From Acidobacteriota bacterium (lineage in GTDB: Bacteria > Acidobacteriota > Terriglobia > Terriglobales > Acidobacteriaceae): DNA of 49,707 bases. Shown here piece by piece: positions 25,054 to 29,423 of the stretch (position 1 is its first letter; each line of letters begins with the position of its first letter). The position numbers and the translations under genes were made by a program. The notes under the pieces were generated by a model. It was not told the DNA's origin. It saw only the letters and a program-made list of their open reading frames with translations, and ran no database searches. The stretch lies in the NCBI GenBank assembly GCA_021800255.1, contig JAJYZC010000017.1:1-49707 (forward strand). The letters run 5' to 3'.

Positions 25054-26163
<1,110 letters not shown>

Positions 26164-26171
26164 GCGCCTAG

Positions 26172-26375
26172 ATTACGGCATTGCGCACGGCGCTCACATC
26201 GGGTCAGGTCTGCACCAATCCTCAGGGTACCGTGGGCTGCCAGAATGTAGTGGGCGATGCGCCGCTGAATGCGAACCTCAATGCGCAGATCGCCAAGTAC
26301 AAGAGCGACCTCGACCCCCTGCGCTTCTATCCCATCGTCTCCTTCGGCCTGGCGTATAACTTCCCTATCCGCTGA
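26172..26375 (+). pseudogene. C-terminal remnant of an outer-membrane beta-barrel protein
   Basis: The frame opens directly after a TAG at 26169 and reads ITALRTALTSGQVC and onwards, ending in LRFYPIVSFGLAYNFPIR. That ending has the alternating hydrophobic pattern of the last strands of an outer-membrane barrel. There is no proper start, signal peptide or room for a barrel: the mutY start lies eight bases upstream. I read it as the tail of a gene whose front was lost in a rearrangement. It sits right beside the AT-rich restriction-modification island. A short intact gene is possible but less likely. Confidence 0.55.
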
Positions 26376-26508
26376 ACACCGGCTGTGAATAATAGCCGCG
26401 CGGCTGATCGCGGGACTGGGCAGGCAAGACACGGTGGCGGTCGAGCATGCCAACCCCTTCAGGAAAGTTGATCCATTTTAGGAGACGCGAATAGTAAGCG
26501 AACTTTAT

Positions 26509-26545
26509 TTGTACGCCGCTTTATAAAGGTGCGTATACTAGGCCC
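26509..26545 (+). promoter_or_regulatory. Methyltransferase promoter and 24-bp operator-like palindrome
   Basis: TACGCCGCTTTA (26512-26523) and TAAAGGTGCGTA (26524-26535) are complementary at 10 of 12 positions, giving a 24-bp near-palindrome centred 22 bases before the methyltransferase ATG. It overlaps a -10-like TATACT (26534-26539); TTGTAC at 26509 is a weak -35 at 19 bases. Transcription would start at or next to the ATG at 26546, and no Shine-Dalgarno sequence precedes it, so the mRNA may be leaderless. The HTH domain of the encoded protein is the natural candidate to bind the palindrome. Confidence 0.5.
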
Positions 26546-28651
26546 ATGCAGATTGCAATTCCAACGGCCCTGACATTCATCCGCTCAAAACACGGTTTAA
26601 GTCAGGAAAAACTGGCCCGAACACTGGGTGTTTCGTTCGTGTCAATCAATCGATGGGAACGCGGTGCGAGCAAACCGAGTCCGGCACAGTCCGCAAAGAT
26701 TCTCCAGCTCTATGCCTCTGCCGTCTCTGGAGGGGAGCTTACATCTCTGGGCCAAATGACCACATTCGCATCGCACGGAGCGCGGAGATTGCGGTCTCTT
26801 CCACTTTTAGATCCGAAGATCGAAGTCAGCCTAGCCGAAGAACCGCTGCCGCCTCTTTTAGACAGACTGACGCATGGTAACTTCTATGGCCATCCCGAAC
26901 TATTAACAGAAATTCTGCTTCGTCATCGGGAACCGGCGGACTCGACGAATCGCCCTCCATCGGAGGGCATGTCCGCTGGCAAAAACACCTATACGTATGA
27001 CGCTCACACGTACCATACCAAAGTGCCGCCGCAGGGCATTGCCGAACTGTTAAAGCACTATCTGCCGTCCGGGGGACTAGTGCTTGACATATTCGCAGGG
27101 AGTGGGATGACGGGCGTTGCTTCTGTTTCCAATGGGTACGACTGCATTCTAAACGAATTGTCGCCGGCTGCTTGTTTCATTGCCAACAGATTTGTCGCAA
27201 ATGTCGATCCTCTCCTTTTTGAGGCCGCTGTTGAGAGGATCCTGGAAGAGAATGACACATTAAGAAAGATGCTCTACACGACATCATGCCGGGAATGCGG
27301 CCGGGACACTGAAGTGCTTTATACCGTATGGTCGTACAAGGTGCTTTGCTCGAAATGTGATTATGAGTTCCTGCTGTGGGACGTTTGCAGAAGCTATGGC
27401 GCGACAGTAAAGGAACATAAAATTCTGTCGGAAATCGATTGTCCCCACTGTCACACCCGCCTCAACAAATCACGGCTTAAGAGAACAATCAGCGTGCCCG
27501 TGCTGGTTGGCTATAAATGCTGCAGGTCTGTACAATGCGAGGCGGCCCTAAATCAAAACGATCTGGAGAAGATATTGTCCCTTGAGACAGCGGCTCCGCT
27601 CGCATCCAGCTTTATACCGGACTTTCCTCTTCCAAACGGTGTTAATTTACGGCAGCCTGCCAAACACGGGCTGGACCGTATCGACCGATTTTATACGCCT
27701 CGTAACCTAACGGCCATGAGCCATCTATGGAAAACGATTCATCGCGTAGAGAATCCCGAAATCGCGGCGCAATTAGGTTTTGTTTTCACATCGCTTTATC
27801 AAAGGGTAACCCGCCTCTCAGAATTCCGCTTTTGGGGAGGAAGCGGGAACACTGCGCGCTTCAATGTTCCCTTCATCTCTAACGAAGCAAATGTGTTTGT
27901 AACATTTGCACGAAAGGCACGCAGTATTCAAGACCATCTTGAGACGACAGCCGGATGCTTTACCGGAAAGTGCTCGGTGATACAGAACTCGGCAACCTCC
28001 CTCGATTATCTGCCTGACAACTCTGTTGACATCATCTTTACTGACCCCCCGTTCGGTTCGTATATCAATTACAGCGAGATGAACATTCTTTGGGAAACTT
28101 GGCTCAATAGATTCACCGAAACTAAGGATGAGGCAATTATTAATCGTGTGCAGGGTAAAGGAACGAAAGAATACTCCGCACTGATGCTGAAGTCGCTGCG
28201 CGAAGCATATCGAGTGTTGCGCCCTGGTCGATGGATGCTCTTGGTCTTTATGAATAATTCCAGTGAAATCTGGAGGGTTTTGAATAAGGCAATCGCTGAT
28301 GCCGGGTTTCGAATAGTGAAAGCAGATATCTTTGATAAGCAGCACGGAACATTCAAACAGTTTGTGAGTGAGAACACACCGGGGTGCGATTTGGTTCTGC
28401 ACTGTTTAAAGCCGGATGTCGAAGTTAGTGTTACTGTACCGCCCTTTCAAGCAAAGATGCAGCTCGATGCATATCTTAAAGAAATGGGGGCAGATCGGCT
28501 GACAACTGAATTTCTGCATGTGAACCGTGAAGCGGAACTTGATGTTCGCAGACTTTACAGTGAATGGGTAGCGCGGTGCGTTACGACACATCACCCGATT
28601 ATGGATTTTACAGAATTTAAAAGGGCGGTCGAAGAGTGGGCAGGAAATTAG
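26546..28651 (+). CDS. HTH-fused DNA methyltransferase with zinc fingers (restriction-modification)
   Basis: The 701-residue protein starts with an XRE-type helix-turn-helix (about residues 5-58; SQEKLARTLGVSFVSINRWE). The methyltransferase part has the SAM motif LDIFAGSGMTG from residue 180 and the catalytic motif TDPPFGSY at 499-506, typical of N6-adenine or N4-cytosine enzymes. Between them lies a 300-residue insert with cysteine pairs (C248/C251, C268/C271, C299/C302, C325/C326/C331) that look like zinc ribbons and may read the target site. The domain order resembles Zn-ribbon adenine methylases (COG1743-like). Base composition is clearly AT-richer than its neighbours. A candidate endonuclease gene ends one base away on the other strand. 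Confidence 0.85.
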   Translation: MQIAIPTALTFIRSKHGLSQEKLARTLGVSFVSINRWERGASKPSPAQSAKILQLYASAVSGGELTSLGQMTTFASHGARRLRSLPLLDPKIEVSLAEEPLPPLLDRLTHGNFYGHPELLTEILLRHREPADSTNRPPSEGMSAGKNTYTYDAHTYHTKVPPQGIAELLKHYLPSGGLVLDIFAGSGMTGVASVSNGYDCILNELSPAACFIANRFVANVDPLLFEAAVERILEENDTLRKMLYTTSCRECGRDTEVLYTVWSYKVLCSKCDYEFLLWDVCRSYGATVKEHKILSEIDCPHCHTRLNKSRLKRTISVPVLVGYKCCRSVQCEAALNQNDLEKILSLETAAPLASSFIPDFPLPNGVNLRQPAKHGLDRIDRFYTPRNLTAMSHLWKTIHRVENPEIAAQLGFVFTSLYQRVTRLSEFRFWGGSGNTARFNVPFISNEANVFVTFARKARSIQDHLETTAGCFTGKCSVIQNSATSLDYLPDNSVDIIFTDPPFGSYINYSEMNILWETWLNRFTETKDEAIINRVQGKGTKEYSALMLKSLREAYRVLRPGRWMLLVFMNNSSEIWRVLNKAIADAGFRIVKADIFDKQHGTFKQFVSENTPGCDLVLHCLKPDVEVSVTVPPFQAKMQLDAYLKEMGADRLTTEFLHVNREAELDVRRLYSEWVARCVTTHHPIMDFTEFKRAVEEWAGN

Positions 28652-28652
28652 C

Positions 28653-29423
28653 TCAAGTGGCTTTTGGCAGACCTTGTTTCGCTTTTTTTTGATGGAGCTT
28701 TGCTTCAATCGCCGACCATAGCTCATCAGAGGTCAGCGTCACTCTCTCGACCGAGAATATGTCCGCGCTTTCCGGAATTCTGTAGACAATGTAGAATTGC
28801 TTCCCTCCTGATGTCCATCGGAACATTGAGGCCGGCAGCGGACCCTCTCTAGCAACGGAGATTGGATATCCTGCAATATTTCTATTCGATCCGGCGGCCT
28901 TGCCGGTATCTTTCCACCAGTATTCTGACGGATCGTATTCCCGCGGCGGGGATTCTTCCCAGTAGATGAACTCCCCGGTGCTCACAGGCACCATAAATGA
29001 CAGCACATTCCACTCGTATCTTCTGACAATCTGCTCGTTATAGTACTTGAGGACAAGCGATCCCAGGGCAGTTGCGTCCATGTTAACGATCGTATTACCT
29101 GTTGTGAGTAGTTCATCCACTTTGGGGCGGGCTACGATGAAGTCCATCGTTTCTCCCAGAAAATCCTTGGCGGAGGGGCGTATCCGCGTTGCTCTTATTC
29201 GTTCGCATTTGACCGAATAATTGACTCGCTTCTCTCCGATCATCACATATAAGTCAGGATTTGGACGATTATCCCGTTTCCCGGTCCAAACCCCTCCTTT
29301 GACCTCTGCGAGTATCTGCTCCCAAGCCGTTCCGAACAGTTCTGTTGCGAAAGGTAAGGCAAAGAGGATGGTCAATTCGTGCTGTGCTTTCAGTATCTGC
29401 GCGTCTGTCAGATATTTGGACAT
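28653..29423 (-). CDS. Candidate type II restriction endonuclease
   Basis: I do not recognise a named family. The 256-residue protein faces the methyltransferase tail to tail with a single base between the stop codons, and shares its AT-rich composition. A PD-(D/E)xK-like core is possible: EVKGGVWTGKRDN, then PDLYVMIGEKRVNYSVKCER, where PD and a lysine in SVK are spaced as in that fold but the usual acidic residue before x-K is replaced by serine. There are no membrane segments or signal peptide. The role rests mainly on the pairing with a DNA methyltransferase. No good Shine-Dalgarno sequence precedes the ATG. Confidence 0.55.
   Translation of the reverse strand: MSKYLTDAQILKAQHELTILFALPFATELFGTAWEQILAEVKGGVWTGKRDNRPNPDLYVMIGEKRVNYSVKCERIRATRIRPSAKDFLGETMDFIVARPKVDELLTTGNTIVNMDATALGSLVLKYYNEQIVRRYEWNVLSFMVPVSTGEFIYWEESPPREYDPSEYWWKDTGKAAGSNRNIAGYPISVAREGPLPASMFRWTSGGKQFYIVYRIPESADIFSVERVTLTSDELWSAIEAKLHQKKAKQGLPKAT

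What the first reader, a model, noticed from the sequence alone, without database searches (positions are those of the whole stretch)
26546..29423. Acquired restriction-modification island with an HTH-fused, zinc-finger methyltransferase and an unfamiliar endonuclease
Seen: XRE-type HTH, SAM motif FAGSG, about 300 residues with five Cys clusters and the DPPF motif in one protein; a convergent 256-residue gene one base away. A sample line in the methyltransferase gene (27361-27420) is 28/60 G+C by hand count against 40/60 in mutY (25981-26040). Known: some methyltransferases with an N-terminal HTH repress their own gene. Inference: a complete mobile type II-like system whose nuclease has an altered or novel active site (PD...SVK).
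Basis: partly seen in the sequence, partly recalled or inferred. Interest (0 to 1): 0.7.

Follow-up and report, generated by a model that had tools for sequence, protein, structure and literature searches.

The report
Restriction-modification pair with altered nuclease
A bacterium of the Acidobacteria group carries a small, apparently acquired two-gene DNA-defence cassette, a methylating enzyme fused to a DNA-binding switch next to a probable DNA-cutting enzyme of an undescribed family whose usual cutting motif has changed, which offers a test of how such enzymes evolve.

Summary
In detail: XRE HTH, SAM motif and DPPF in one 701-aa protein (four Cys pairs, not five clusters), a convergent 256-aa gene one base away, exact G+C counts. 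Best reading: an acquired Type II-like restriction-modification cassette. The 256-aa protein has no significant library hit, but profile comparison places it in an undescribed family with three branches. In 8 of 8 independent loci whose methyltransferase is 45-77% identical to the window's (own included), a family member is adjacent: 2 convergent (RE-A, D-x12-S-x-K), 6 tandem (RE-B, D-x8-E-x-K). The third branch adjoins an HTH-fused C5 methyltransferase and matches a PADLOC Type II REase model (E 7e-5). Between RE-A and RE-B loci the predicted recognition insert is 61-67% identical (44% in one), the nucleases only about 20%: same site with swapped nuclease is the inference. Core and insert are of BREX-3 BrxXI/PglXI type, but the genome has no PglZ match. 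Purifying selection argues against a decayed gene. Not shown: nuclease fold (two AlphaFold jobs failed), cleavage, target, autoregulation, mobility. Two of 11 family members lack an adjacent methyltransferase.

The parts
26546..28651 (+). MT: 701-aa HTH-fused amino-methyltransferase of BrxXI/PglXI type
   Evidence: Pfam HTH_3, N6_N4_Mtase; PADLOC PglXI E 4.2e-107, MTase_II E 1.3e-78
26546..26725 (+). N-terminal XRE-type HTH (about residues 1-60)
   Evidence: HTH_3 residues 13-56, E 1.8e-9
27092..27106 (+). SAM motif I FAGSG (residues 183-187)
27209..27979 (+). Insert between motif I and motif IV (about residues 222-478), predicted target-recognition region, with Cys pairs 248/251, 268/271, 299/302, 325/326
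   Evidence: a profile of the insert finds the methyltransferases of three BREX-3 loci, E 4e-19 to 9e-12; 8 Cys kept in 6 of 6 sequences, own included
28043..28054 (+). Catalytic motif IV DPPF (residues 500-503)
28653..29423 (-). RE: 256-aa predicted restriction endonuclease (branch RE-A)
   Evidence: family profile comparisons; convergent partner kept in L032
29202..29258 (-). Predicted active-site hairpin P56-D57-x12-S70-V71-K72-C73-E74
   Evidence: hhalign places S70-V71-K72 on the ExK of RE-B; P56, D57, S70, K72, E74 invariant in 3 of 3 RE-A
28797..28937 (-). Second conserved block of the family (YDP...W ... RWTSGGKQ, residues 163-209)
   Evidence: kept in RE-A, in part in RE-B and RE-C
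26512..26535 (.). 24-nt imperfect palindrome ending 10 nt before the MT start: candidate operator of the HTH
   Evidence: the repeat finder I2, 88% complementary; not kept as a palindrome in L032 (by eye), so weak

Best explanation
A horizontally acquired, self-contained Type II-like restriction-modification cassette. MT methylates an amino group (probably N6 of adenine, from DPPF and the BrxXI kinship) in a specific site read by its Cys-rich insert; its N-terminal HTH probably represses its own promoter. RE, which faces MT and so must have its own promoter, probably cuts unmethylated copies of the same site with a PD-(D/E)xK-type active site in which the ExK glutamate has become serine (PD-x12-SxK). 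Shown here: the two genes, their joint recurrence and purifying selection, and the homology of RE to D-x8-ExK proteins beside the same methyltransferases and to one protein that matches a Type II REase model. Inferred: nuclease fold, cleavage, shared target, autorepression, and that E74 (two residues after the lysine) supplies the missing acid.
For: 8 of 8 independent loci with MT at 45-77% identity (own included; L025's MT is a 292-residue part) have an RE-family gene adjacent: 2 convergent RE-A (window, L032), 6 tandem RE-B (L023, L024, L025, L033, L060, L096). Three of them were found by searching with the nuclease, not the methyltransferase: L032, L033, L096. The third branch (L009) lies 33 nt downstream of an HTH-fused C5 methyltransferase and matches PADLOC REase_II, E 7.1e-5. 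hhalign scores A-C 64 and 58, B-C 52 and 46, A-B 35 and 43, against at most 26 for 150 unrelated ORFs per profile and 27 for reversed sequences. The A-B alignment puts SVK on ExK. G-x-G-V-E-x-K is invariant in 7 of 7 RE-B. Window/L032: RE 76.2%, MT 77.3%, both under purifying selection.
Against: No fold support: the AlphaFold models have mean pLDDT 35 and 34. RE itself has no significant hit in Pfam, NCBIfam, PADLOC or PDB sequences (best PDB E 0.8), and the 9-member family profile none in the PDB. Weak hits point elsewhere, taken as chance: an RE-B profile to rotavirus VP8*, E 0.0017; L009 to Pfam YqgU, E 0.0016, below its cut-off. The catalytic Asp of RE-B is Gly in 1 of 7 (L025); RE-A and RE-C lack the Glu. 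Two of 11 family members have no methyltransferase next door: L006 (megaplasmid; its only N6_N4 match lies about 80 kb away) and L064 (jumbo phage with no N6_N4 or C5 match; other methyltransferase families not searched). Only L009, of nine members scanned together, matches the REase_II model, so the window protein is linked to it at second hand.
Confidence: 0.8

Rival explanations
1. The 256-aa protein is a catalytically dead relative of the nuclease family that has become an accessory DNA-binding or regulatory subunit of the methyltransferase.
For: ExK glutamate absent in RE-A and RE-C; inactive restriction-endonuclease-like domains acting as sensors are proposed in defence systems (PMC12839542, passages).
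Against: P56, D57, S70, K72 and E74 are all invariant in 3 of 3 RE-A, down to 39% identity, and RE is as constrained as MT between window and L032; CCGG-family enzymes are active with a moved acid (PMC6344858, passages).
Confidence: 0.1
2. The family is in origin a free-standing nuclease of phages and megaplasmids (attack on host or rival DNA, or homing), and its place beside MT reflects capture for a function other than restriction of the methylated site.
For: Members without an adjacent methyltransferase in Sinorhizobium phage Phosso and the Miltoncostaea megaplasmid, the phage with no N6_N4 or C5 match.
Against: 9 of 11 members sit beside a methyltransferase of one of two classes; MT and RE of window and L032 differ to the same degree.
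Confidence: 0.06
3. MT is an orphan epigenetic methyltransferase or a remnant of BREX type 3, and RE is an unrelated neighbour.
For: MT core and insert are BrxXI/PglXI-like; methyltransferases of BREX-3 loci are among its relatives on plasmids.
Against: No PglZ match in the own genome; after the catalytic part only about 75 residues remain; RE-family neighbour in 8 of 8 close relatives, own included.
Confidence: 0.03

Closest known systems
BREX type 3 methyltransferase BrxXI/PglXI (PADLOC PDLC02541)
   Same: Motif I, then a large Cys-bearing insert, then DPPF; the insert itself matches (E 4e-19 to the enzyme of an E. faecium BREX-3 locus). The review describes a 4-Cys Zn-finger insert between strands 2 and 3 (PMC12839542 section 26, read whole).
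   Different: N-terminal XRE HTH, 8 conserved Cys in the insert rather than 4, no ~280-residue C-terminal helical region, no PglZ in the genome; two-gene system. The review says searches with the insert found no homologues outside BREX, though it finds the same insert in its BREX-related (DUF1156) systems (passage).
PADLOC MTase_II models PDLC03312 and PDLC03346 (Type II methyltransferases)
   Same: Match MT over core and insert (E 1.3e-78 and 3e-71), so Type II methyltransferases of this build are already in a defence library.
   Different: Their profiles are longer (1344 and 1068 positions); which enzymes they were built from was not available here.
HTH-fused, self-regulating Type II methyltransferases (SsoII, Ecl18kI, EcoRII, ScrFI)
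   Same: N-terminal HTH that represses its own gene in those systems (PMC3874152, passages and cited titles); the third-branch locus L009 has a C5 build with HTH.
   Different: Here an amino-methyltransferase with a Cys-bearing insert; regulation untested.
PADLOC REase_II PDLC03480 (Type II restriction enzyme)
   Same: Matches the third-branch protein L009 over residues 33-185 (E 7.1e-5).
   Different: No match to the window RE or to RE-B; member enzymes of the model not identified here.
CCGG-family restriction enzymes (Cfr10I, NgoMIV, PfoI) with PD...K...D/E
   Same: Precedent for a PD-(D/E)xK enzyme whose acid is no longer two residues before the lysine (PMC6344858, passages).
   Different: No sequence link found; the R-(D/E)R recognition motif is not conserved after K72 (by eye).

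Membership tests
Type II restriction-modification system | Adjacent genes for a DNA methyltransferase and a separate endonuclease-family protein | tested here: met
   8 of 8 close loci, own included; that the family is an endonuclease is inferred
Type II restriction-modification system | Nuclease cuts the unmethylated site that the partner methylates | not testable with these tools
   needs bench work
PD-(D/E)xK nuclease superfamily | (P)D-xn-(D/E)xK motif | tested here: not met
   window RE has PD-x12-SxK; RE-B relatives have D-x8-ExK (E and K 7 of 7, D 6 of 7)
PD-(D/E)xK nuclease superfamily | Restriction-endonuclease-like fold | tested here: inconclusive
   AlphaFold mean pLDDT 35.1 and 34.1; no fold search was run on these
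CCGG-family REases | R-(D/E)R recognition motif just after the catalytic lysine | tested here: not met
   by eye in A5: after K72 come CER, CEG and TEA in the three RE-A
BREX type 3 | BrxXI-type methyltransferase with Cys-bearing insert | tested here: met
BREX type 3 | PglZ and the other BREX components | tested here: not met
   no PglZ (PF08665) match in the own genome; the other components were not searched
HTH-autoregulated methyltransferase | N-terminal HTH domain | tested here: met
   HTH_3 E 1.8e-9
HTH-autoregulated methyltransferase | Binding to an operator over its own promoter | tested here: inconclusive
   palindrome 26512-26535, not kept in L032 (by eye)
Mobile genetic element | Own integrase/transposase or target-site duplication | tested here: inconclusive
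   none recognised by eye among ORFs of 23-33 kb, of which four were scanned against Pfam; repeats flanking the pair look like chance

The most novel reading that the evidence does not exclude
Within one restriction-modification lineage the methyltransferase and its target site stayed while the nuclease was exchanged (or diverged almost beyond recognition) and changed from tandem to convergent; the new nuclease works with a rearranged PD-SxK-x-E site in which the catalytic acid has moved from two residues before to two residues after the lysine on the same strand.
Probability: 0.3. Interest if true: 0.65.

Novelty: new variant of a known kind. Interest (0 to 1): 0.5.

Why it matters
If true, it adds an endonuclease family without a model in the Pfam and NCBIfam copies searched and without a PDB relative found by sequence; it places the BREX-3-type methyltransferase insert in simple two-gene systems, where a 2026 review saw none outside BREX and BREX-related loci; and it gives natural pairs of systems, with a probably shared target but a different active-site motif, in which the evolution of a catalytic acid can be tested directly.

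Tried and rejected
AlphaFold of RE with 3 sequences (mean pLDDT 35.1) and of an RE-B member with two RE-A rows (34.1): unusable, so no fold search was run; the strands they show at the motif are not used as evidence. Viral-contig searches with RE-A and with mixed RE-A/L009 alignments found no relative, nor did the L009 protein; RE-B gave one contig. L009 had no match in plasmids. PDLC03480 in 297 genomes of the phylum and 14 controls: 0 hits, which says nothing because no positive rang. Three weak RE matches in the phylum are taken as chance: one (L004) is antisense to a long ORF that I recognise as UvrA from memory; the other two contain stops and were not looked into. Weak PDB and Pfam matches (VP8*, E 0.0017; YqgU, E 0.0016; PDB matches at E 0.58 and worse) taken as chance. 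Idea that MT is M.NruI-like: those enzymes have DPPY in a gamma-like motif order and the word zinc does not occur (PMC2890505, first of four parts and passages); dropped. BREX membership: rejected. CCGG-family membership: rejected on the recognition motif. Direct repeat GAACTTTAT at 26500 and 29516 as target-site duplication: judged chance, the first copy lies just before MT. Guess that L009 is ScrFI-like: recall only, untested. Exact empty site: not obtained; neither the permease beside RE nor MT or RE was found in the ten congener stretches fetched around mutY.

Full report
What is there. The window carries MT (26546-28651, +, 701 aa) and RE (28653-29423, -, 256 aa), tail to tail with one base between. 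MT has an XRE-type HTH, SAM motif FAGSG at residue 183, then 312 residues, then DPPF at 500. Four Cys pairs lie in the insert; these eight and C281 are kept in 6 of 6 aligned sequences, own included. The pair is the G+C minimum of the window, 49.5% against a mean of 60.8% (sd 2.8) for stretches of that size. A contig titled as an Acidobacteria MAG (L031) is 99.4% identical to the window over 7.3 kb, flanks included.

What MT is. PADLOC's best models are PglXI (E 4.2e-107) and two Type II methyltransferase models (E 1.3e-78 and 3e-71). The motif order is SAM, insert, catalysis, the alpha order as set out in PMC2890505. A profile of the insert alone, from six sequences with the window's, finds the methyltransferases of three loci annotated as BREX-3 (E 4e-19, 5e-12, 9e-12; loci). 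A 2026 review describes such an insert, with a 4-Cys Zn motif, as the hallmark of type 3 BrxXI and reports no homologues outside BREX (PMC12839542, section 26), though it finds the same insert in its BREX-related DUF1156 systems (passage). The window's genome has no PglZ match. So the BrxXI build is used here outside BREX; since PADLOC's Type II models also match, that use is not wholly unknown.

What RE is. Alone it has no significant match in Pfam, NCBIfam, PADLOC or PDB sequences and only a PHROG of unknown function at E 0.2. Relatives build a family of three branches. RE-A: window, L032 (76%), L006 (39%). RE-B: L023, L024, L025, L033, L060, L096 and phage Phosso (L064). RE-C: L009. HMMER with the RE-A profile gives L009 E 1.5e-8 (31 bits) and with the RE-B profile E 1e-5 (22 bits) among 1,820 ORFs; the best unrelated ORF, with RE-A, scored 16 bits, E 5e-4. 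hhalign gives A-C 64 and 58, B-C 52 and 46, A-B 35 and 43 (either profile as query), against maxima of 26.1, 25.3 and 23.8 for 150 unrelated ORFs each and 27.4 for reversed sequences. With Phosso added and the truncated L024 left out, A-B is 46 and 49, and SVK falls on ExK (controls not rerun for that profile). Phosso against RE-A alone scores only 28. L009 matches PADLOC's REase_II PDLC03480, E 7.1e-5, and sits 33 nt after an HTH-fused C5 methyltransferase. This is the only direct link to an annotated restriction enzyme; of nine members scanned together only L009 shows it. Weak matches elsewhere, taken as chance: VP8* E 0.0017 for an RE-B profile, YqgU E 0.0016 for L009, below its cut-off. 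Two AlphaFold jobs gave mean pLDDT 35.1 and 34.1, so the fold is untested.

The active site. RE-B has D-x8-E-x-K; in 7 sequences E and K are invariant and D is kept in 6 (Gly in L025). RE-C has D-x8-G-x-K. RE-A has PD-x12-S-x-K, with P56, D57, S70, K72 and E74 invariant in 3 of 3. A Glu two residues past the lysine is invariant in RE-A and absent at that place in all seven RE-B; on a strand it would face the same way as the residue it may replace. That is inference. A moved acid has precedent in the CCGG family, PD...K...D/E (PMC6344858, passages).

Linkage. Independent loci with MT at 45-77% identity, own included: window and L032 (RE-A, convergent, 1 and 2 nt apart), L023, L024, L025, L033, L060 and L096 (RE-B, same strand, overlapping or up to 3 nt apart; L024's RE and L025's MT run off their contigs). 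That is 8 of 8. Not counted: L031 (same species), and L015-L017, L034, L057, L063, which are the same places again. Of 11 family members, 9 lie beside a methyltransferase; L006 and L064 do not. The megaplasmid's only N6_N4 match is about 80 kb off; the phage has no N6_N4 or C5 match; other methyltransferase families were not searched. Among the other loci held, many with methyltransferases at about 33% identity or less, no family member was found; several of those loci are short. L096's MT (646 aa) aligns with the window's from residue 137 on and shows no counterpart of the HTH.

Co-evolution and swap. Window against L032: RE 76.2%, MT 77.3%; pN/pS 0.16 and 0.17, synonymous sites saturated. 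Window against the RE-B loci L023, L024, L060 and L033: insert 61-67% identical, catalytic part 62-67%; with L096 44% and 55%. RE against L023, L025, L060, L033 and L096: 17-22% in one seven-sequence alignment, though a three-sequence alignment gave 28% for L033. If the insert sets the target, the site may be shared while the nuclease was exchanged or diverged; this is inference.

Acquisition. MT at E <= 1e-20 occurs in 9 of 299 genomes of the class, own included, and in none of the 6 other congeners in that sample; MT profile at E <= 1e-60, 4 of 396 in the phylum, own included. RE, apart from three chance-level matches, is in 1 of 396 genomes of the phylum, the own one. RE-B profile: 2 of 162 genomes in G275's class and 1 of 95 in G544's order, G275 and G544 themselves included. 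mutY was found in 29 of 30 genomes of the genus sample (own included); stretches around 10 of the 28 others were read and none has MT or RE. L032 has the pair between other genes. No mobility gene was recognised by eye beside it.

Regulation. A 24-nt imperfect palindrome at 26512-26535 ends 10 nt before MT's ATG; it is not kept in L032 (by eye). HTH-fused methyltransferases that repress their own gene are established (PMC3874152, passages). No sigma-70-like site was listed before either gene.

Print search. Of the searches run, no listing showed a paper on this system; listings only were seen, beyond the papers named with what was read of them. REBASE and most subscription papers could not be searched.

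Verdict. A probable Type II-like system of a known kind, new in its nuclease family and in the pairing.

Noticed in passing
window 26181-26375 (+): A 64-aa ORF whose end (LDPLRFYPIVSFGLAYNF) reads like the C-terminus of an outer-membrane beta-barrel, perhaps a gene remnant between mutY and the cassette; by eye only.
   Followed up: no
L064 2005-2805 (phage Phosso PV764938.1): A jumbo phage encodes an RE-B relative (hhalign E 2e-38) among tRNA genes, annotated as hypothetical, with no N6_N4 or C5 methyltransferase match in the record.
   Followed up: partly
L006 8004-8816 (Miltoncostaea oceani 815-kb plasmid): An RE-A relative with PD...SVK kept, in a stretch with RNA ligases, threonyl-tRNA ligase and uracil-DNA glycosylase and no adjacent methyltransferase.
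   Followed up: partly
L012 4891-10663, L013 5969-11756 (Arthrobacter-group conjugative plasmids): A small HTH gene followed by two tandem BrxXI-like methyltransferases, a protein that in L012 matches MTaX1 (PF20296) and an ATPase: a further setting of this methyltransferase type.
   Followed up: no
L042, L044, L046, L048, L049 (viral contigs) and L027: A recurring three-gene run: BrxXI-like methyltransferase, a 659-826-aa ORF, then an ORF of over 600 aa, perhaps another defence cassette.
   Followed up: no
L035 1742-5668: A viral-contig ORF of 1309 aa (reaching the contig end) joins an HTH-like start (by eye) to a methyltransferase 33% identical to MT.
   Followed up: no
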